IMG/VR virus record: IMGVR_UViG_3300037882_000362
Location: 1 to 42,201 of that record
Source of the DNA: a virus
Strand: one strand, 5' to 3'
DNA: 42,201 nucleotides
Of this stretch, positions 1,454-38,839 are shown piece after piece; the stretch's first letter is position 1, and each line of letters opens with the position of its first letter. The position numbers were made by a program, and so were the translations under genes. The notes below the pieces were generated by a model, which was given only the letters and a program-made list of their open reading frames with translations, had not been told where the DNA came from and ran no database searches.

Positions 1454-1825
1454 ATGAGTAAGTTTTTGACTTTAATTGAAGAGTTCGACCCAAATTCCCA
1501 AGGTGATCCTAAATGGGAACTAATTGACTTCCTAAAATCTAAGGGAGTTAGTGTTTCTTTGGTTCAAGGAACCGATATGGTTTACATTGATACGGGTTCT
1601 AAAACTATTCCAGTTACAGTTTCAAAACCTGAAGAAGATACTGAGAGCACTGCTATGTTGAATGACATTGCTGCTGATGAAAAGGATAAGTTCCAATCAC
1701 AAGCTGCTCAAACTGTAAAGATGAGACAAAGAATTGCTCCTAAAGTTATTAAGAGTGCTCAAAATCAAATCAAAGAAGTTGAAACCGCTCTTCGCAAACC
1801 AGTCAACACAACTCTAGGATATTAA
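1454..1825 (+). CDS. Small putative head-internal protein with capsid-targeting-like N-terminus
   Basis: 123 aa, function unknown. The N-terminus MSKFLTLIEEF resembles T4 capsid-targeting sequences (short amphipathic helix, hydrophobic-x-E cleavage site). The body has a short beta-rich stretch (VSLVQGTDMVYIDTGSKTIPVTV, about residues 32-55) and then a charged, helical, Gln/Lys-rich C-terminal half (DKFQSQAAQTVKMRQRIAPK). It has its own late promoter box and is followed after one base by the next small gene, with which it probably shares a transcript. A structural or injected protein is likely from context; no enzyme motif is visible. Confidence 0.6.
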   Translation: MSKFLTLIEEFDPNSQGDPKWELIDFLKSKGVSVSLVQGTDMVYIDTGSKTIPVTVSKPEEDTESTAMLNDIAADEKDKFQSQAAQTVKMRQRIAPKVIKSAQNQIKEVETALRKPVNTTLGY

Positions 1826-1826
1826 T

Positions 1827-2198
1827 ATGATTTCAAAAACTTTAAAGCTCATTGATCGCTACATGCTCGTAATTGAGCAAGGTGAAGCACCACCAATGGA
1901 AGATCCTAATCAAGCACAAGGACAGCCACAAGATGTCCAAGACGTTACACAACAGACTCCAGAGGAAACAATGCCTATGTCATCTGCTGGTGAGGATGAG
2001 TATATCCAAAACATGATTGATGCTGCATTATTTGAACCTTCTCCAGAAGAAGCAAATACACTTCTGAATCTTCAGAGTCAAATGCAAATGAAGAAATATA
2101 CAAATGCTCGCGAAGAAATTCTTCCGACTGTTATTTCCATTATCGGTTCTTCCACTCAAGCCAACGGTTTGAAGCAGAACTTGAATAATATCGAGTAA
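1827..2198 (+). CDS. Small Gln/Pro-rich putative virion protein
   Basis: 123 aa, function unknown. It begins with an amphipathic stretch (LKLIDRYMLVIEQGE) with possible prohead-protease sites (VIE), followed by a low-complexity acidic Gln/Pro-rich linker (about residues 23-55) and a helical C-terminal half containing SPEEANTLLNLQSQMQMKKY. It lies one base after the previous stop. AGGA about eight bases before the start is one of the few plausible ribosome binding sites in the window. It is exactly as long as its neighbour, but the sequences are not evidently related. A role in the capsid core is inferred from the N-terminus and context only. Confidence 0.55.
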   Translation: MISKTLKLIDRYMLVIEQGEAPPMEDPNQAQGQPQDVQDVTQQTPEETMPMSSAGEDEYIQNMIDAALFEPSPEEANTLLNLQSQMQMKKYTNAREEILPTVISIIGSSTQANGLKQNLNNIE

Positions 2199-2200
2199 CG

Positions 2201-2208
2201 TATAAATA
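2201..2208 (+). promoter_or_regulatory. Full T4-type late promoter TATAAATA, five bases before ATG 2214
   Basis: An exact match to the T4 late consensus TATAAATA, then GCTGC and ATG. It is one of three full-consensus boxes in the window and helped define the shorter TAAATA core. Confidence 0.7.
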
Positions 2209-3211: not shown

Positions 3212-3226
3212 TTAATATCCATTTGA

Positions 3227-3232
3227 TAAATA
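3227..3232 (+). promoter_or_regulatory. Late promoter box TAAATA, five bases before ATG 3238
   Basis: TAAATA, ATAGC, then ATG. It decides the start of the following gene at 3238 rather than at an in-frame alternative at 3223. Confidence 0.6.
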
Positions 3233-3237
3233 ATAGC

Positions 3238-3654
3238 ATGAGATTTAGAGATAGAGAAAATTCTTTAATGTGGGAACATTATCAAGACAGTCGTCCAGTT
3301 GTAGGATTCAACCAACAACCTAAGACGCCTACTGTCAAAAACGCGCTCTACACTCCTGAAGAGGAAGCTGAAGTTATGCTTGCTTTTGATGAGCCAGCAG
3401 GACCAGTAGAAGTTGATGACTCCCTTGAATTGGAAAGTCCAGAAGAAGAACTCGATGAAGTTCTACATTCCGATCTTAAGAAATTGGCTGACTATTCACA
3501 AAAACTTCTTACGGTCAAACATAGTGATTTGGACACTTGGATGCTTGCCAAACTAATTAAAGCTTCTGAATATGTTTCAGACGTTTGGCACCGTGTTGAT
3601 GCTAAAGCAGACTTTGCAAATACTGGTGTTGATCAAATCGATCCTTCCCTGTAA
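3238..3654 (+). CDS. Putative small virion protein with conserved helical C-terminal domain
   Basis: 138 aa. The first part is polar (residues 1-40), followed by a Glu/Asp-rich linker (about 41-80) and a helical C-terminal domain: DLKKLADYSQKLL, then DLDTWMLAKLIKASEYVSDV. The pattern of a helix pair with W..AKL.KA.EYVS.V resembles a short domain I know from several T4-like marine phage proteins (W-x-x-x-K-x-x-K-A-A-D-Y), whose function I cannot state. The start is chosen by the late box. It sits among other capsid-targeted-like proteins and is probably packaged or structural. Confidence 0.6.
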   Translation: MRFRDRENSLMWEHYQDSRPVVGFNQQPKTPTVKNALYTPEEEAEVMLAFDEPAGPVEVDDSLELESPEEELDEVLHSDLKKLADYSQKLLTVKHSDLDTWMLAKLIKASEYVSDVWHRVDAKADFANTGVDQIDPSL

Positions 3655-3660
3655 TGCAAC

Positions 3661-4101
3661 ATGGTAACTTTCAAACATTTCTTTGTAGAGAAATCAGTTC
3701 TTGGTTTAGAAGAAACCATTTACATTGATGGTATTGGTCAGTTAAGAGCTAAACTCGATACTGGTAATGGAGCATTTAATGTTCTCCATGGTGAAGATAT
3801 TAAGGAAAGTGGTAAAATAGTTCGTTTCACTACCGAAAACGGAATTGTGATCGAAGCACCTACAACCGATCACATCACAATTAATCTTGGTGCTGGAAAT
3901 AGAGAAGATCGTCCAGTTGTCCTTTTCAACGTCAAAGTTGGAAATAAGGTTTTCAAAGATGTCCCATTCTCAATTGGAAACAGAAGTGAGAACACTCACA
4001 AGGTTCTGATCAGTAAAAGTTTTATCCAAAACGAATTGGATGCATTAATCGACGTTTCTTTAGTTGACGTTGCCCACCGAAACATAGAAGTAAAAGTATG
4101 A
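3661..4101 (+). CDS. Retropepsin-like aspartic protease with capsid-targeting-like N-terminus
   Basis: 146 aa. LRAKLDTGNGAFNVL places the catalytic D-T-G of a clan AA aspartic protease at residues 33-35. The later KVLISKSFIQNELDALIDVS matches the second hydrophobic element of retropepsin-like or 'ATP-dependent zinc protease'-type domains. Only one DTG is present, so activity would need a homodimer. The N-terminus MVTFKHFFVEKS looks like a short capsid-targeting peptide with an FVE cleavage site, suggesting prohead delivery. It follows the previous gene by six bases and overlaps the next by ATGA. Substrates could be internal head proteins or, if injected, host proteins; this is inference. The fold call is fairly good. 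Confidence 0.7.
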   Translation: MVTFKHFFVEKSVLGLEETIYIDGIGQLRAKLDTGNGAFNVLHGEDIKESGKIVRFTTENGIVIEAPTTDHITINLGAGNREDRPVVLFNVKVGNKVFKDVPFSIGNRSENTHKVLISKSFIQNELDALIDVSLVDVAHRNIEVKV

Positions 4102-4607
4102 TCACTCAGAGAGAATTATTAGATGAAGGCTTTTGGGATAAAGTTAAAAAAGGTGTTACAGCTATACCGAAAGCTGCTTCTGGCGTTCTTGGTGCCGCTG
4201 TCAAAGGTGGTGCAAAGGCTTTGGATTATGTAGCCCCAGAAATAACACATCCATTACACAGATTAGAAGCAGGAATTAGAGACATTGGAAGTTCTGCAAG
4301 ATTGGGATACGATGCATTCTCTGGTGGAAGACCAAAAACATATAAAGATATTCTAGCGGATGCTGGATATTTTATGAACGAGAAGGATGGAGTTACCAGA
4401 TCTGGTAAAAACCACGTTGTTTCTGGTTGGAGAATTCTCGGACACAATAAGAAAGGTCAACCCATTCCTGATAAATTAAGTCGAATGCTTACATTTCTTT
4501 TCGACAAAAATAACAATTTTAAAATTGTCGGGACTTCTACTCAAGATGCCTCTACCCTTGTTAGGCAAAAACCAATTAAAATACCGAAACAAAAAACAAG
4601 ACCTTGA
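4098..4607 (+). CDS. Putative head-internal protein with capsid-targeting-like N-terminus
   Basis: 169 aa, function unknown. MITQRELLDEGFWDKVKKG is a strong T4-like capsid-targeting pattern: a short helix ending LLDEG, then a basic amphipathic segment. Residues about 20-45 are Ala/Gly-rich and basic (AIPKAASGVLGAAVKGGAKAL), which may be membrane-active or DNA-contacting. The C-terminal half carries a compact region (YKDILADAGYFMNEKDGVTRSGKNHVVSGWRILG) and ends very basic. It overlaps the protease gene by ATGA. A packaged or injected protein is the best inference; no enzyme motif is seen. Confidence 0.6.
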   Translation: MITQRELLDEGFWDKVKKGVTAIPKAASGVLGAAVKGGAKALDYVAPEITHPLHRLEAGIRDIGSSARLGYDAFSGGRPKTYKDILADAGYFMNEKDGVTRSGKNHVVSGWRILGHNKKGQPIPDKLSRMLTFLFDKNNNFKIVGTSTQDASTLVRQKPIKIPKQKTRP

Positions 4608-28339: not shown

Positions 28340-29497
28340 ATGAGTTTGCAACTTATTTTAGCTATCCTATCTAAGAATAGGACTCCATCCCCTCCCCTAT
28401 CCGGGGATCAGGTTGGATTCAGATTTTCTGGAACTGATGAGAGTGATTTAGAATTGGGTTTCAGATTCGAATCGTCTACTCTTAGCGCCACAGGACCGTG
28501 GACTATTATGGGGTCTATAGAAGCGTTATCTGGAACGGGACAGACATATAGTGAAGATGTGTATGGATTTGAGTATAACACACATTATTGGTTGAGGTCT
28601 ATCTCTTACAATGCTAGTGGGGACTCGACCAATTACACGGTATTGGAGAGAAATACAAGACCAGAGTTTTCTCCAACAGGATTATCCGCAACTGCCATCA
28701 ATTATTCAGATATAGTATTAACGTGGAACCTACCCTCAGAACTTCCATTAGGAGGATACTACATAGAAAAATCATCTGCGGGGCCATTTGAAGAAGTAAC
28801 AACTGTATCAAATACTGTCTCAACATATTCGGTTCTGGGATTATTCGACAATACCGAATATAATTTTAGGATATATTCATATAATAATAATGGAATAGAT
28901 GGTAGAGCTATTGCACCCACCCCATCTAATACTTCTTCAGCTACAACTGAGGAAGCCCCACCTGTTATTGAGGATAATTTCGACAGGGCTGATGGAGGTC
29001 TTGGCTCTAATTGGACTATTAGAATGGGAGATAATATGGCTATCGAAGATGGTGAAGTCGTAACCAATGGAGTTGATGCGGAAGATCAGATGGCTGTGTG
29101 GAATGCTGATGTGTTAGGGAATGACCAGTTTTCTCGCTGGACAGTAAGATCATCACAACATGGAAACCTGTATCCGGGATTGATAGTTAGGGGAAATATG
29201 TCTGGAAACTTGAATTGTTATTTCTACAACTCCTCCATGAATGGAAACAACGGAATAGCTAAGTTTGTTGATAATGATTATTCGAGATTGGGTGACGAAC
29301 TCTTTACAACATGGAATAACGAAGATATCATGGAACTTAGAGCCGTTGGGAATGTCGTATCTATTTGGAAAAACGGGGTAATGGTTGCATCGAGAGAGGA
29401 TTCAACATTCGCTAGCGGAGCACCCGGAATAGCCCAAAATGCTTTAGGATCGGAACACACATTAAAATGTGATAGCTGGGTTGGGGGAGAATTATAA
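28340..29497 (+). CDS. Fibronectin type III adhesin with lectin-like C-terminal domain
   Basis: 385 aa from ATG 28340; the frame opens at 28307 but that start lies inside the previous gene. A first degenerate FN3-like repeat spans about residues 22-105. A clearer FN3 domain follows (about 107-205: SPTGLSATAINYSDIVLTWNLPS, YYIEKSSAGPFEEV, TEYNFRIYSYNNNG). Residues about 212-385 (DNFDRADGGLGSNWTI, WTVRSSQHGN, LELRAVGNVVSIWKNG-like) have the look of a concanavalin-like jelly-roll domain that binds carbohydrate. It is part of the fibre cassette and probably a host-binding accessory. No late box is placed at five bases, so it may be co-transcribed with the fibre gene. Confidence 0.75.
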   Translation: MSLQLILAILSKNRTPSPPLSGDQVGFRFSGTDESDLELGFRFESSTLSATGPWTIMGSIEALSGTGQTYSEDVYGFEYNTHYWLRSISYNASGDSTNYTVLERNTRPEFSPTGLSATAINYSDIVLTWNLPSELPLGGYYIEKSSAGPFEEVTTVSNTVSTYSVLGLFDNTEYNFRIYSYNNNGIDGRAIAPTPSNTSSATTEEAPPVIEDNFDRADGGLGSNWTIRMGDNMAIEDGEVVTNGVDAEDQMAVWNADVLGNDQFSRWTVRSSQHGNLYPGLIVRGNMSGNLNCYFYNSSMNGNNGIAKFVDNDYSRLGDELFTTWNNEDIMELRAVGNVVSIWKNGVMVASREDSTFASGAPGIAQNALGSEHTLKCDSWVGGEL

Positions 29498-29500
29498 ATA
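29493..29500 (+). promoter_or_regulatory. Full late promoter TATAAATA, six bases before ATG 29507
   Basis: Full T4 consensus, then TTACAT and ATG. The box overlaps the stop of the FN3 gene. Confidence 0.6.
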
Positions 29501-31713: not shown

Positions 31714-31721
31714 TATAAATA
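31714..31721 (+). promoter_or_regulatory. Full late promoter TATAAATA, five bases before the prohead protease ATG
   Basis: A full consensus box, then ACTAT and ATG 31727. A second TAAATA is just upstream at 31707. Confidence 0.7.
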
Positions 31722-31726
31722 ACTAT

Positions 31727-32392
31727 ATGTTGAAACTTAAACTAATGGCCGAGAATCCAGATGTGTTCGATAACTTCGAAATTCTGGAAGAGCAAAACAA
31801 CTTAAAAGGGCAGTCCACCTTGTATGTCAAAGGTCCGTTCATTGGATGTAACCAAGTCAACAAGAATAAAAGATTGTATGGTCTGGATGATACCCGCAAG
31901 GATGTTCAACGATATATTAATGAGATGGTGTTGCCGGGTAGAGCAATGGGAGAATTAAATCACCCAGCTTCCGCAGATGTTAATCTCGAAAGAGCATGCC
32001 ACCTTGTAACTGAACTTGTTGAAGAAGGTGATTCATTCTTCGGAAAGGCTAAAGTATTATCTTCTCCATGTGGCCAAATTCTTAGATCTCTGATCAATGA
32101 TGGTGTTAAAGTTGGTATGTCAACGAGAGCTTTAGGTTCCTTACAAGAAGGAAAAGGATACAACGAAGTTAAAAACATGTATCTTGTTGCTGTCGATGCT
32201 GTTGCTGACCCATCTTATCCAAAAGCATTTGTTAATGGAATTCTTGAAAGTAAGAGTTTCGTTGTTGATGACGAGGGAAGATTTGAAGAAACCTATGATA
32301 ATTTCGAAAAGAATATTGCGAAATTGCCTAAAAAGGACGTAGATAACTATTTACGTGAACAAATTGTGAAGTTTATACAATCACTTGGGTAA
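31727..32392 (+). CDS. 21: Prohead core protease (gp21-like)
   Basis: 221 aa, close to T4 gp21 (212 aa). GELNHPAS holds catalytic His79 and GMSTRALGS holds the nucleophile Ser132, the serine protease pattern of T4-like prohead proteases; the late DAVADPSYPKAF segment is also conserved. The enzyme matures the prohead by cutting core, scaffold and capsid proteins after (L/I)xE-type sites. Its own N-terminus MLKLKLMAEN contains such a site. The gene is followed by the core and scaffold genes. Several small genes elsewhere in the window have N-termini that could be its substrates. Confidence 0.92.
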   Translation: MLKLKLMAENPDVFDNFEILEEQNNLKGQSTLYVKGPFIGCNQVNKNKRLYGLDDTRKDVQRYINEMVLPGRAMGELNHPASADVNLERACHLVTELVEEGDSFFGKAKVLSSPCGQILRSLINDGVKVGMSTRALGSLQEGKGYNEVKNMYLVAVDAVADPSYPKAFVNGILESKSFVVDDEGRFEETYDNFEKNIAKLPKKDVDNYLREQIVKFIQSLG

Positions 32393-32803: not shown

Positions 32804-33682
32804 ATGAAGAAAAATCTCAAAAATTTATTTACAGAAGACGTTCAGGCTATACTGACTGACGAAACTCTTACCGCTATTGAAGAAGCCTTCAATGCCAAAG
32901 TGGAATCTGCTGTCGAAGCTGCGCTCTTAGAACAAGACGAACTTTATGCTACCAAACTACAAACCTTCTATACTGCGATTGATAAAGATCACTCCAAGAA
33001 AATGAAGAGAGTTGTTGAATCAGTTGATAAATCAAATGCTTCCAAGCTTGTTAAAATTGTTAAACTGTATGAAAGAGATCACTCAATGGACGCTACTAAG
33101 TTCAAAAAGAGTCTTGTTGAATCCATCAGTGAATACCTAGAAGAATATCTTGTCGAAACTGTTGGTGCGAAAGATCTTGCTCAAGCTGTTAAAAACAAAA
33201 CTGCTTACAATGTCCTTGAAAACATGCGTAAAGTTCTATCAATCGATTCTGTCATGATGAAGGAATCAGTTCAAGAAGCTGTTATTGATGGTAAGAATCA
33301 AATCACTGAACTTCAAAAGGAAAACGCTGAACTTAAGAAACAGTTTAAAGCACTTTATGAACAAAACAAAAAGACTGAAGTTACTTCTCTTCTCGAAGCT
33401 AAAGTGTCCAAGTTCCCAGAAGCTAAAAAGAATTTCATCAAGAAAGCATTAGAAGATAAATCACTTGAATTTATTAATGAAAACTTTGACTATGCTGTTC
33501 GTCTATTTGACAAACAAGAAAAAACAAAACTAACAACTCTCAAAGAAGAAGCTTTGAAAAAACGAGTTGTTAAACCAGATGTCGTTCCTTTCCAAAAAAC
33601 TGAAAAAGTTATCGAGGAAAAGGTAAATAAAGACATGGGTGGATACCTCCACGCTCTTTCTAAAGGAAAGGGTTTAAAATAA
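32804..33682 (+). CDS. 22: Prohead scaffold protein (gp22-like)
   Basis: 292 aa from ATG 32804 (a TTG at 32768 lies inside the previous gene). The N-terminus MKKNLKNLFTEDVQ is capsid-targeting-like with an LFTE cleavage site. The rest is almost wholly helical and coiled coil, with abundant Glu, Lys and Ala, as expected for a scaffold that is later digested by gp21. Other conserved-looking stretches are LVKIVKLYERDHSMDATKF and KFPEAKKNFIKKALEDKSLEF. T4 gp22 is 269 aa. It lies directly upstream of the major capsid gene, as in T4, and contains a late box near its 3' end. Confidence 0.88.
   Translation: MKKNLKNLFTEDVQAILTDETLTAIEEAFNAKVESAVEAALLEQDELYATKLQTFYTAIDKDHSKKMKRVVESVDKSNASKLVKIVKLYERDHSMDATKFKKSLVESISEYLEEYLVETVGAKDLAQAVKNKTAYNVLENMRKVLSIDSVMMKESVQEAVIDGKNQITELQKENAELKKQFKALYEQNKKTEVTSLLEAKVSKFPEAKKNFIKKALEDKSLEFINENFDYAVRLFDKQEKTKLTTLKEEALKKRVVKPDVVPFQKTEKVIEEKVNKDMGGYLHALSKGKGLK
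33624..33629 (+). promoter_or_regulatory. Late promoter box TAAATA inside gene 22, probable promoter of gene 23
   Basis: TAAATA is followed by AAGAC and then an in-frame ATG (33635) 15 codons from the end of the scaffold gene. It could start a transcript 105 bases before the capsid ATG at 33740, where no closer box exists. Confidence 0.5.
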
Positions 33683-33739: not shown

Positions 33740-35227
33740 ATGAAAATTCCTCAAAGTATTGACCCAAAGAATGTAAATGCGATTGTCGCTAAATGGAAAG
33801 ACATTTTGGACTACAGCTCGAAAGACGTTGCAGAAATCCAAAACGAACACGTTTACCGCACAACTGCTATTCTGTTGGAAAACCAAGAGAGATGGTGTGT
33901 TGAAGAATCAAATGCTGCTGCCTCTGGTGGTGTATTTGGTGCTGGAACAAGCATCGGAGCTTCTGGACCAAATGTTTCTCCTAACGGAGACAACTATGCG
34001 GCTGGAGATTCTCGCCTTCCAAAAATCCTCATCCCAATGATTAGACGCACTTTCCCCGAACTCATCTCTAACGAGATCTGCGGTGTTCAACCAATGGGCG
34101 GTCCTGTTGGTCTTGCTTTCGCTCTGCGTTATCATTACCAAAATGCTGAACTTCTGAATACTGCCGACCATGTTGGTAGAGCTGCTGTCGGAACTGGTGG
34201 TCCTACATGGAACCCAAATACTCCTACCTATAGTGGTAATGGCCCAACGGCTACTGCTGCTTTATCTACGGAACTTGGTTATCAACTGTTGGATACTCGT
34301 TTCACTGGTGTCTCATCTCAACATCTTGTTGGATTAGCTGGTGTGTGGGACTTCCAAGCACAAGATCGTGGTGTTGCAGCACTCCTGCAAGACTATGAAA
34401 ACACTGGACGTATCCCTCAGATCGAAATGAAGTTCGAAAAAACCTCTGTTGAAGCTGGGACTCGTCGCCTTGCAACTCGTTGGTCTATCGAATTGGAACA
34501 AGATATTAAAAATATGCAAGGCATCGACATCGATGGCGAGCTTACTAATGCAATGTCTTACGAAATCCAAGCCGAAATCGACCGTGAAGTTGTAATGAGA
34601 ATGATCCAAGCTGCATTCAATGCAGGTTATGGTGCAGGATACTCCTTCTGGAGTCCTGTTAGTGCTGATGGTCGTTGGACTGCTGAACGTAATCTTACTT
34701 TCTACCAAAAACTTATTATCGAAGCTGGTCGTATGGCCGCTCGTAACCGTAGAGGTGCTGCCAATTTCATTATTGCTACCCCTCGCGTTTGCAGTATCCT
34801 TGAGATGCTTCCTGATTTTAAAGTTTACGAAATCAATGGCACAGTTTCGACTGCTGGTGTTGGTATCGCAAAGGTAGGAACAGTTGGATCTCGTTTCACT
34901 GTCTATCGTGACACAAGAACTGAAGTTCAGAATTCCGCTTATTATAATCCAAACTATTATGCAGCACCTTACACCGATCCGGTTGAGTATGCATTGATGG
35001 GTTATAAGGGATCTGAATACTATGACACTGGTATTATCTACTGTCCATATATCCCGATCATGGTGCAACGCGCTATCGATCCTGTTAATTTCACGCCTCG
35101 CGTTGGTCTAATGACCCGTTACGGTATTGTTAATAACATATTTGGTGCAAATCTTTATTACCATTTAATTATTGTAAAAGGTCTTGGTGTGGCATTTACT
35201 CCGGGTTCAGTTTCAGTTTATCTGTAA
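33740..35227 (+). CDS. 23: Major capsid protein (gp23-like)
   Basis: 495 aa (T4 gp23 is 521). Features of the T4-like HK97-fold capsid protein are clear: LPKILIPMIRRTFPELISNEICGVQPMGGPVGLAFALRYHYQ, KFEKTSVEAGTRRLATRWSIELEQDI, and the C-terminal GIIYCPYIPIMVQRAIDP with RYGIVNN. The N-terminal 60 or so residues (IPQSIDPKNVNAIVAKWKDIL) form the delta domain that T4 gp21 removes. The codons are richer in C and G than those of the neighbours (for example CGC and CTC), as in highly expressed genes. The leader between gp22 and gp23 has no late box; expression probably starts inside gene 22. A strong terminator follows. Confidence 0.96.
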   Translation: MKIPQSIDPKNVNAIVAKWKDILDYSSKDVAEIQNEHVYRTTAILLENQERWCVEESNAAASGGVFGAGTSIGASGPNVSPNGDNYAAGDSRLPKILIPMIRRTFPELISNEICGVQPMGGPVGLAFALRYHYQNAELLNTADHVGRAAVGTGGPTWNPNTPTYSGNGPTATAALSTELGYQLLDTRFTGVSSQHLVGLAGVWDFQAQDRGVAALLQDYENTGRIPQIEMKFEKTSVEAGTRRLATRWSIELEQDIKNMQGIDIDGELTNAMSYEIQAEIDREVVMRMIQAAFNAGYGAGYSFWSPVSADGRWTAERNLTFYQKLIIEAGRMAARNRRGAANFIIATPRVCSILEMLPDFKVYEINGTVSTAGVGIAKVGTVGSRFTVYRDTRTEVQNSAYYNPNYYAAPYTDPVEYALMGYKGSEYYDTGIIYCPYIPIMVQRAIDPVNFTPRVGLMTRYGIVNNIFGANLYYHLIIVKGLGVAFTPGSVSVYL

Positions 35228-36617: not shown

Positions 36618-38210
36618 ATGGGATTAGTTTATAAAAACAGAATGATTATTAATCAGCGTGGAGGTTCCATAGATATTGATAATACTACAGAGCAAGAAAA
36701 AATTAAATTATCACATAGAAGTGGTTCTAATTTTTCTATGACAAATGTTGTCAATGCTGAACTTGCTACTAACAATAAACAAATTAATGTAGTAAATGAT
36801 TCATTTGAAACCGTGGGAAATGATAAAAGTGTTTTCGTTGCAGGTAATCACACTGTAAGAACGGGTGGAAGTTCATTCCATTTGAAAGGATTCATAGATC
36901 AACCACAACTCGATGCATTCAGCAATTGGAAAGATGCCTATGAAGGTATAGCCAAGATCAACTCAGAGTTCAAGATCATGCGTGGAGGTGATAGTTATCC
37001 AAATGGAACTTCCACTTCCCAAGGTGGTAGTAGAGCATCTAATCCAGTTCTAGGATCTATTGTCTATACTGTAAACAATACCTTCAATGGATACAGTGGA
37101 GTCCCATTGCGTAGAAGTGATCAGGATGATGTTGCAACATATATTAAAGTTCCTGACGCTGGAAACACTCAAGCTGCCGCAGCTTTTGAAATAGTAGCAG
37201 ACAATATTACTCTTGCAGCAGGATCACAAGGATCTAGTGCTCCGGGTGTATTGGAATTTGGTGTTGATTTAAGTGCAGCTACCGAAGGTGGTTCTTGGTC
37301 TGCAAACACTCAAGCACAGTCAATCAATAATCTCATTCTTGGAATACAACCAATCCTAAACCCTATTGAACAACAGATGGGTGAAGGGGGAGATGAAACA
37401 TACTTCACCAAACGAAACAAGTTTGAACAAGTTGGTGCTGTATTCAATGATTATCCATCAATTAGGATTGATCACAAAGGTAGAAGTCAACCTCTGGAAG
37501 TTCTAGTCACTTCTCCGGGTGTATTCAAGAACCACGATTATATTCCACACGTAGAAGATGTAGATAACACATCCAACTTCCCATGTGGAAATGATGATGG
37601 TGTCGTTGGGAATAGACTGAGTAGGATCGTAGGTAGTGGTGGTATTCAATTGAAATCCACTGGACCATTTGAATTTGGTGGTTCTACAATGAAAGTAGGA
37701 TTCAAACGTATCAATATCAATGCATCACACGGCATTCAAATCGCGTCTGAAGAATCTGTAGAGATTCAATCTCTAAAAACAATCACTCTAAGAACGAACA
37801 GACAGGTTTACGTTGAGTCTGCTCTAGGAGTTAAAGGAAACCTAATTGTGGGTGGTGGTGCCTACGTTGAGGGTGAGTTATACTGCCAACACATAACTGC
37901 GCCACTGGAAGTTCATCAAACACAAGATACTACTGTGTTTGGAAAATTTTCTACTGAAAGTAGTAGATCTCTCTTAATAGGAGAGGCTGAAATTGGTGGT
38001 CAATATTATCCGGTGTATGCGCTACCCACTGACAATTTACTTGTCACTTATCCCCACAGCCATCACCACAATGGAATACCAATGCGTCTTACTAAGCGCA
38101 ACAAAGACGTTCGTGACTTTGCAGCACTTGAAGGAATCAACACACATAATAATGTTGCTCAATCCTTGCCGCAAAATCACGAACGCAAAGAAGCTCAGTT
38201 TATCGATTAA
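36618..38210 (+). CDS. Baseplate spike protein (gp5 C-terminal beta-helix-like)
   Basis: 530 aa. Short repeated strands typical of gp5-type spikes appear early (SIDIDNTTEQEKIKLSHRSGSNFSM; VGNDKSVFVAGNHTVRTG, residues about 60-85) and late (GIQIASEESVEIQSLKTITLRTNRQVYVESALGVKGNL, about 373-410). In between is an unrecognised insert with an acidic and Gln-rich stretch. YPHSHHHNG (about 476-484) may bind a metal, as the HxH motif at spike tips of P2 gpV-like proteins does; here it lies about 50 residues before the end. It would be the trimeric membrane-piercing spike. The split from the hub gene differs from T4, where one gp5 chain has both. Confidence 0.75.
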   Translation: MGLVYKNRMIINQRGGSIDIDNTTEQEKIKLSHRSGSNFSMTNVVNAELATNNKQINVVNDSFETVGNDKSVFVAGNHTVRTGGSSFHLKGFIDQPQLDAFSNWKDAYEGIAKINSEFKIMRGGDSYPNGTSTSQGGSRASNPVLGSIVYTVNNTFNGYSGVPLRRSDQDDVATYIKVPDAGNTQAAAAFEIVADNITLAAGSQGSSAPGVLEFGVDLSAATEGGSWSANTQAQSINNLILGIQPILNPIEQQMGEGGDETYFTKRNKFEQVGAVFNDYPSIRIDHKGRSQPLEVLVTSPGVFKNHDYIPHVEDVDNTSNFPCGNDDGVVGNRLSRIVGSGGIQLKSTGPFEFGGSTMKVGFKRININASHGIQIASEESVEIQSLKTITLRTNRQVYVESALGVKGNLIVGGGAYVEGELYCQHITAPLEVHQTQDTTVFGKFSTESSRSLLIGEAEIGGQYYPVYALPTDNLLVTYPHSHHHNGIPMRLTKRNKDVRDFAALEGINTHNNVAQSLPQNHERKEAQFID

Positions 38211-38839
38211 ACAATCTCATCGATAAATCCATAGAGAAGACATTCTTCTGCACTCAAGAACAAGTCTCTCTTCAGAAGTTCATCCAATCTCTTCATTGGG
38301 ATCTTTGTATATTCTTTGTAGAAAGTCTTAATGAACTTCATCATGTTTGTAGCATTTTCCATGCTATCTTCCATCTCGGAATACTTACCAACCATTCCAC
38401 CAGATAACTGATGAATTAAGAGGATGGCATGTTTTCCCATCAGTCTCTTCTTACCAATGACAGTGAGCATCGTTCCAGCGGAAGCGACACACCCATCAAT
38501 GTAAGTGTAGATTTTTGATTTCAAAGTTGGGATAAGATCAACTGCTGCTAATACAGCGTGTAGATCTCCACCATTACTTTTAACTCGTAGATGGATAATT
38601 GGGTCGAATCCTTCACCCAGAATATTTTTCGTATTCTGTAGTTTGGTATCAACTTCAACTAATAGTCGATTCAATTCCAAAATGGATTCATTAGTAATGT
38701 CTTCGTAGAAGAAGATTTTATTTTCCAGAACCCTAATAGACATACCACCACCCATAATTTGGATGGGGGATACTTGAGGTTCGTCTTCTTCCTCTTCTCC
38801 GAGAGACATTCTATACTTGTTGTTGTTTTTCCAATTCAT
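38207..38839 (-). CDS. ClpP-like serine protease
   Basis: 210 aa. It matches the ClpP core: LRVKSNGGDLHAVLAAVDLI, IYTYIDGCVASAGTML with nucleophile Ser120, ILLIHQLSGG with His143, and the helical handle after it; the C-terminal LLYGFIDEIV is also ClpP-like. The third residue (Asp) cannot be fixed by eye. Residues 1-35 are an acidic extension (GEEEEDEPQ). Phage ClpP-like proteins can be prohead proteases or general proteases; here gp21 already exists, so a different role such as host or phage protein turnover is likely. It lies 14 bases after nrdA, and its stop interlocks with the spike gene on TTAA. Confidence 0.85.
   Translation of the reverse strand: MNWKNNNKYRMSLGEEEEDEPQVSPIQIMGGGMSIRVLENKIFFYEDITNESILELNRLLVEVDTKLQNTKNILGEGFDPIIHLRVKSNGGDLHAVLAAVDLIPTLKSKIYTYIDGCVASAGTMLTVIGKKRLMGKHAILLIHQLSGGMVGKYSEMEDSMENATNMMKFIKTFYKEYTKIPMKRLDELLKRDLFLSAEECLLYGFIDEIV

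What the first reader, a model, noticed from the sequence alone, without database searches (positions are those of the whole stretch)
3661..4101. Retropepsin-like protease that may be packaged in the head
A single-DTG aspartic protease domain follows a capsid-targeting-like N-terminus. The phage already has gp21 and a ClpP-like protease, so this would be a third protease, with a chance of being injected with the DNA to act on host proteins.
Basis: inference. Interest (0 to 1): 0.6.

Follow-up and report, generated by a model that had tools for sequence, protein, structure and literature searches.

The report
Head-packaged phage protease resembling RimB
A small phage gene encodes a bacterial-type relative of the HIV-family proteases, and it starts with the same ten-residue address tag that phage T4 uses to load proteins into its head, so this protease is probably carried in the virus particle and delivered into the host cell together with the DNA.

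Summary
The ORF at 3661-4101 (+, 146 aa) encodes a single-DTG protein that matches Pfam PF05618 above its cut-off. Its predicted fold matches the solved RloA peptidases and then HIV protease. D33 and G35 are invariant in 67 distinct relatives, as are the residues aligned with the RloA poly-glutamate-binding residues, apart from one gapped sequence.

The capsid-targeting idea passes independent tests. A matrix built only from this family's N-termini, applied to T4, places ipIII and ipII 2nd and 3rd and ipI 9th of 271 ORFs. In cultured Pelagibacter phage Mosig it places a RimK-retropepsin fusion 1st of 191. The residues that matter in the T4 tag (4, 7, 8, 10; PMC9026906) are the conserved ones here: F4, F/Y7, F8, E10. 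The same tag occurs on ADP-ribosyltransferase-, NUDIX- and nucleotidyltransferase-like proteins of related phages.

Best reading: a RimB/RloA-type protease packaged as a T4-type internal head protein, trimmed by gp21 after E10 and injected with the DNA. Fold and tag are well supported by computation. Injection, cleavage at E10 and substrate are inferred. The absence of Shine-Dalgarno sites in this phage clade suggests Bacteroidota hosts, so ribosomal protein bS6 is an attractive but untested target.

The parts
3661..4101 (+). Retropepsin-like aspartic peptidase gene (RimB/RloA-like, PF05618), 146 aa
3661..3690 (+). Capsid-targeting-like N-terminus MVTFKHFFVE (codons 1-10); predicted gp21 cut after E10
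   Evidence: F4, F/Y7 and E9/10 in 65 of 67 distinct relatives; motif recurs on unrelated proteins and ranks T4 internal proteins near the top; residues 1-9 have pLDDT below 50
3757..3765 (+). Catalytic motif D33-T34-G35
   Evidence: D33 and G35 67/67; residue 34 is T or S
3751..3753 (+). K31, equivalent of RloA K46 (poly-glutamate contact)
   Evidence: 67/67; mapping
3910..3912 (+). R84, equivalent of RloA R114 (poly-glutamate contact)
   Evidence: 66 of 67, the other gapped; mapping
3982..3984 (+). R108, equivalent of RloA R137 (poly-glutamate contact)
   Evidence: 66 of 67, the other gapped; mapping
3223..3654 (+). Upstream neighbour with a variable acidic middle and a conserved WM.AK...DY domain; possible partner or alternative substrate
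   Evidence: found upstream in 42 of 84 relatives by a crude pattern, within 30 nt in 38
4098..4607 (+). Downstream neighbour starting MITQRELLDEGFW, overlapping the protease stop codon; conserved neighbour, function unknown
1454..1825 (+). Conserved neighbour starting MSKFLTLIEEFDP, possible head-associated small protein
1827..2198 (+). Conserved neighbour starting MISKTLKLIDRY
31727..32392 (+). gp21 prohead protease (Peptidase_S77), the predicted trimming enzyme
   Evidence: PF03420 E 7.8e-32
32804..33682 (+). gp22-like scaffold/core protein; N-terminus MKKNLKNLFTE resembles the tag
   Evidence: position between gp21 and gp23; PSSM p about 8e-4; no Pfam match
33740..35227 (+). gp23 major capsid protein; conserved hydrophobic-x-E site at the end of the pro-region
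38207..38839 (-). ClpP-like protease
   Evidence: PF00574 E 5.1e-27

Best explanation
The protein is a small homodimeric aspartic peptidase of the bacterial RimB/RloA (PF05618) kind, used by this T4-related phage as an internal head protein. Its first ten residues (MVTFKHFFVE) act as a T4-type capsid-targeting sequence that carries it into the prohead core. gp21 then removes the tag after E10, and the roughly 136-residue mature enzyme stays in the head with the DNA and enters the host at infection. There it probably hydrolyses poly-glutamate chains on host proteins (or acts on the host RimK system), with ribosomal protein bS6 the leading candidate. Supported here by computation: family, fold, catalytic and poly-Glu-binding residues, and statistical identity of the N-terminus with the T4 tag. 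Inferred: dimerisation, packaging, cleavage at E10, injection, activity and substrate.
For: PF05618 above cut-off; profile hits to 9g58 and 2pma; fold matches to RloA, RloA2, Lpg0085, then HIV protease. K31, D33, G35 are 67/67 and R84, R108 are 66/67 with one gap. These align with RloA K46, D48, R114, R137: K46, R114 and R137 contact poly-glutamate in the published model, and mutating D48, R114 or R137 impairs the enzyme (PMC12239564). Tag: F4, F/Y7, E9/10 in 65/67, the positions that matter in T4 IPIII (4, 7 targeting; 8, 10 processing; PMC9026906). A PSSM from these N-termini finds 8 non-protease genes in six related genomes at p<=1e-4 where about 0.15 is expected and exceeds both shuffle controls; some tagged proteins are ART-PolyVal, NUDIX and DUF5661 proteins. 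In T4 it ranks ipIII and ipII 2-3 and ipI 9 of 271; in Mosig a RimK-retropepsin fusion is 1 of 191, so the tag does not depend on the protease fold. A homologous fusion in phage YerA41 is annotated 'structural protein', and that phage's virions were analysed by LC-MS/MS (PMC7354516). gp22 and gp23 of this clade show similar hydrophobic-x-E sites.
Against: No virion proteome exists for this clade. The YerA41 annotation could not be traced to the supplementary peptide table, and YerA41_066 shows no such tag. NCBIfam RimB/RloA scores are far below equivalog cut-offs, so substrate specificity may differ. E10 also lies where some cellular RloA proteins have an E, so E10 alone is weak evidence. No RimK was found in 12 relatives, so any RimK link must be through the host. 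The host is unknown.
Confidence: 0.62

Rival explanations
1. The protease is packaged through the tag but works inside the prohead, helping gp21 to clear acidic core or scaffold proteins such as the acidic protein encoded just upstream. It is then a head-maturation protease rather than an injected effector.
For: Head-type tag; conserved adjacency to a protein with a variable acidic middle; gp21, gp22 and gp23 present.
Against: RloA needs about 8 consecutive Glu and leaves a mixed Asp/Glu tract uncut (PMC12239564). No E-run longer than 5 was found in six phage gene sets. gp21 already does this job in T4. The tag recurs on enzymes that resemble injected effectors.
Confidence: 0.17
2. The protein is a cytoplasmic protease made late in infection, and the N-terminal resemblance to the T4 tag is structural coincidence or ancestry of the fold.
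For: E10-K11 also occurs in cellular RloA. There is no direct packaging data.
Against: Position-specific conservation of F4, F/Y7, F8 outside the fold; occurrence of the motif on unrelated proteins and on the ATP-grasp end of the Mosig fusion; recovery of T4 internal proteins.
Confidence: 0.15
3. The packaged protein is not catalytic and serves as a poly-Glu-binding or RimK-stimulating factor.
For: RimB also stimulates RimK (PMC11957791).
Against: The catalytic Asp and Gly are invariant in 67 sequences.
Confidence: 0.06

Closest known systems
RimB (retropepsin-like endopeptidase of Pseudomonas; NCBIfam NF052261)
   Same: Single-DTG PF05618 fold, catalytic Asp, conserved Lys/Arg for poly-Glu; cytosolic type without a signal peptide.
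   Different: Scores 29.7 bits against an equivalog cut-off of 200; phage-borne, with an N-terminal capsid tag and no rimK neighbour; GNGAFNVLHG after the Asp-Thr/Ser in place of the cellular GA-type motif.
RloA/RloA2/RloA3 periplasmic retropepsins (9g58, 9g59)
   Same: Best fold matches and the same poly-Glu contact residues.
   Different: RloA proteins are secreted and act in osmotic stress; this one carries a head-targeting tag in place of a signal peptide. RloA3 scores 35.4 bits against a cut-off of 210.
T4 internal head proteins IPI-III and the capsid-targeting sequence
   Same: Same tag length and the same key positions 4, 7, 8, 10.
   Different: IPs are small non-protease proteins; IPI inhibits a restriction enzyme. 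No retropepsin-like cargo was found described.
T4 Alt, injected ADP-ribosyltransferase
   Same: Enzyme packaged in the head, trimmed by gp21 and injected to modify host proteins.
   Different: Different fold, chemistry and propeptide (MELITELFDE, PSSM rank 24 of 271).
Pelagibacter phage Mosig RimK-retropepsin fusion (Mosig_00005) and Yersinia phage YerA41_066
   Same: Retropepsin domain related to this one; the Mosig protein also starts with a tag-like peptide.
   Different: Fused behind a RimK-like ATP-grasp ligase; the window phage has the protease alone.
Bacterial RimBK hybrid (PMC11957791)
   Same: Same two activities in one pathway.
   Different: RimB lies at the N-terminus of RimK there; the phage fusions have the reverse order, and the window has no RimK domain.

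Membership tests
PF05618 / retropepsin-like bacterial peptidases (RimB/RloA superfamily) | Profile match above the curated cut-off | tested here: met
   35.1 bits against 27
PF05618 / retropepsin-like bacterial peptidases (RimB/RloA superfamily) | Single catalytic D[T/S]G per chain, conserved | tested here: met
   D33 and G35 67/67, residue 34 T or S
PF05618 / retropepsin-like bacterial peptidases (RimB/RloA superfamily) | Retropepsin fold | tested here: met
   Foldseek to 9g58, 9g59, 2pma, HIV protease
PF05618 / retropepsin-like bacterial peptidases (RimB/RloA superfamily) | Homodimer with the Asp dyad at the interface | not testable with these tools
   Only monomer prediction is offered
RimB or RloA equivalog | NCBIfam equivalog score | tested here: not met
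   RimB 29.7 against 200, RloA3 35.4 against 210, RloA 22.1 against 280
RimB system | rimK in the same genome | tested here: not met
   No PF08443 in 12 related records; the records may be incomplete and a host RimK is possible
RimB/RloA specificity | Conserved poly-Glu contact residues K/R | tested here: met
   K31 67/67, R84 and R108 66/67 with one gap, mapped to RloA K46, R114, R137
RimB/RloA specificity | Cleavage of at least 8 consecutive Glu | not testable with these tools
   Needs enzyme assay
T4-type CTS-bearing internal head proteins | 10-residue N-terminal tag with aromatic 4 and 7, hydrophobic 8, Glu 10 | tested here: met
   65/67 with F4, F/Y7, E9/10; T4 positive control
T4-type CTS-bearing internal head proteins | gp21-type prohead protease in the same phage | tested here: met
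   PF03420 at 31727-32392
T4-type CTS-bearing internal head proteins | Presence in the virion, trimmed at the tag | not testable with these tools
   No proteome for this clade; indirect: YerA41_066 annotated as structural protein

The most novel reading that the evidence does not exclude
Aquatic T4-like phages load Rim-pathway enzymes (RimB-like protease here, RimK-retropepsin fusion in Mosig, RimK-like ligase in Melnitz) into the head as tagged cargo and inject them to reset glutamylation of ribosomal protein bS6. In the Bacteroidota-like hosts suggested by the lack of Shine-Dalgarno sites, bS6 helps to form the pocket that hides the anti-Shine-Dalgarno tail, so the protease would retune host translation at the first moment of infection.
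Probability: 0.2. Interest if true: 0.86.

Novelty: new variant of a known kind. Interest (0 to 1): 0.64.

Why it matters
T4-type head cargo is known for restriction inhibition (IPI) and ADP-ribosylation (Alt). A conserved retropepsin-like protease as head cargo would add proteolysis, and possibly ribosome modification, to the functions that phages deliver before any phage gene is expressed. It also gives a testable tag model: one short motif, learned from one protein family, recovers known and candidate head cargo in T4, Mosig and uncultured phages, which could turn many proteins of unknown function into candidate injected proteins.

Tried and rejected
RimK-like ligase in the same clade: none in 12 records. 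Phage-encoded poly-Glu substrate: no E-run above 5 in six gene sets. Cellular relatives of the exact family: none found in bacterial and archaeal genomes. Host by RNR similarity: no hit. Phage-encoded bS21: none in 12 records. A looser tag pattern was barely enriched, 59 seen against about 50 expected, and was dropped for the position-specific matrix. TATAAATA late-promoter count in the window is at chance. PHROGs gave no family. A prior description of the family in phages was not found in the papers searched.

Full report
Observation. The reported ORF is at 3661-4101 on the plus strand, 146 aa, with DTG at residues 33-35. Relatives at 53-79% identity exist in 43 viral loci from a single-sequence scan, and a profile scan confirmed 436 relatives. 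A scan of bacterial and archaeal genomes with the family's conserved peptides found none, so this exact family appears to be viral. The window is an IMG/VR virus fragment. Its gp23 is only about 33% identical to that of cyanophages, so the phage belongs to a distant T4-like clade.

Fold and family. Pfam PF05618 ('Putative ATP-dependent zinc protease') matches at 35.1 bits against a cut-off of 27. That name is misleading: studied members, RimB and RloA, are retropepsin-like aspartic peptidases that cleave poly-glutamate (PMC11957791; PMC12239564). A profile of 30 relatives finds 9g58 at 4.5e-9 and 2pma at 8.7e-5. The AlphaFold2 model (pLDDT 76, pTM 0.71) matches 2pma, 9g58, 9g59 and then HIV-1 protease. 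NCBIfam scores to RimB, RloA and RloA3 lie far below the equivalog cut-offs, so it belongs to the superfamily but not to those equivalogs.

Active site. In 67 distinct relatives K31, D33, G35, N36 and G37 are invariant; R84 and R108 are present in 66, with a gap in the other. By the alignment and identical residue spacing, K31, D33, R84 and R108 correspond to RloA K46, D48, R114 and R137. K46, R114 and R137 contact the poly-glutamate substrate in the published model, and alanine at R114 or R137 had the strongest effects on activity among the substrate contacts. Catalysis and poly-Glu preference are therefore likely but unproven.

The N-terminus is a T4-type capsid-targeting sequence. Residues 1-9 are outside the confident model, yet F4, F/Y7 and E at 9 or 10 are kept in 65 of 67 relatives, and the other two are the same motif shifted by one residue. 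In T4 IPIII, residues 4 and 7 drive targeting and residues 8 and 10 drive processing (PMC9026906). A matrix trained only on this family's N-termini was applied to six genomes of the clade: 13 N-termini reach p<=1e-4 where 0.15 is expected, and 8 of these are not the protease. Shuffles within N-termini and column permutations do not reproduce this. The tagged proteins of related phages include an ART-PolyVal ADP-ribosyltransferase, a NUDIX protein and a DUF5661 protein, nucleotidyltransferase-like proteins (my reading of the sequence), and, more weakly, the gp22-like scaffold.

Positive control. The same matrix, which has never seen T4, puts ipIII and ipII at ranks 2 and 3 and ipI at rank 9 of 271 T4 ORFs; rank 1 is gp61.1. 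In Pelagibacter phage Mosig the top hit of 191 is Mosig_00005, a RimK-like ATP-grasp ligase followed by a retropepsin domain. There the tag is on the ligase end, so it cannot be a by-product of the retropepsin fold. The RimK-like protein of Methylophilales phage Melnitz-3 starts MTQKFSQFITEE and scores as high. A homologous RimK-retropepsin fusion in Yersinia phage YerA41 is annotated 'structural protein'. The YerA41 study identified 63 virion-associated proteins by LC-MS/MS, but I could not check the peptide table.

Processing. gp21 is present. In this clade the gp23 pro-region ends in a conserved hydrophobic-x-E site, and gp22 begins with F-[ST]-E, in line with F8-V9-E10 as a gp21 site in the protease. 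E10 alone is weak evidence because cellular RloA can carry an E at the same place.

Substrate. RloA cuts runs of 8 or more Glu but not 6 or fewer. No E-run longer than 5 exists in six phage gene sets of this clade, which argues against a phage-encoded substrate if specificity is kept. No RimK (PF08443) is found in 12 relatives. In genes of this clade the Shine-Dalgarno core frequency is 5.7%, equal to shuffles (5.8%), against 58% in T4 and 49% in Mosig. Bacteroidia ribosomes do not use Shine-Dalgarno sites, because the 16S tail is held in a pocket of bS21, bS18 and bS6 (PMC9976891), and RimBK hybrids are mostly in Flavobacteriales and Rhodobacterales (PMC11957791). A Bacteroidota host and bS6 (RpsF, the RimB substrate) as target follow as an attractive but untested inference.

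Probabilities. Retropepsin-like peptidase fold, 0.97. N-terminus acts as a capsid-targeting sequence, 0.85. Enters the host with DNA, 0.65. Cleaves poly-Glu, 0.5. bS6 as the target, 0.2.

Noticed in passing
window and loci L046-L068, L122-L154: Genes of this T4-like clade show no Shine-Dalgarno enrichment (5.7% against 5.8% shuffled; T4 58%), with A-rich positions -10 to -8, T at -7 and A at -6; this suggests Bacteroidota hosts.
   Followed up: partly
L045:7029-8414 (Mosig_00005); L161:82-1131 (Melnitz-3): RimK-like ligases of two cultured marine T4-like phages carry capsid-targeting-like N-termini; the Mosig one is fused to a retropepsin domain at the C-terminus.
   Followed up: partly
G001:C1:127251-128063; G004:C1:132373-133209; G001:C1:19425-20489; G002:C1:183056-184543: Tagged candidate head cargo in relatives: ART-PolyVal, NUDIX and DUF5661 proteins and a tRNA-nucleotidyltransferase-like protein.
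   Followed up: partly
L163:18966-19130 (T4 gp61.1): T4 gp61.1 (MKTFKEFIKED...) is the top T4 hit of the tag matrix and is a candidate unrecognised internal head protein.
   Followed up: no
L008:6447-7202: A GIY-YIG endonuclease-like ORF directly after the protease gene ends in a copy of the protease C-terminus (TTELDALIDVSLLNVADKNLEVSV), as if a homing endonuclease had inserted into the 3' end of the gene.
   Followed up: no
window 3223-3654: Neighbour with a hypervariable acidic middle and a conserved C-terminal domain (WM.AK...DYVSD.W), often directly upstream of the protease; no Pfam match.
   Followed up: partly
window 2201-2208, 29493-29500, 31714-31721: All three TATAAATA sites of the window lie on the plus strand 5-6 nt before a start codon (one is gp21); in T4 the spacing is 13 nt or more. 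The count itself is at chance.
   Followed up: partly
L155:2761-3417; L156:2827-3342: Retropepsin-like proteins in uncultured phages of about 635 kb, with the usual cellular DSGA/DTGA motif and no such tag.
   Followed up: no
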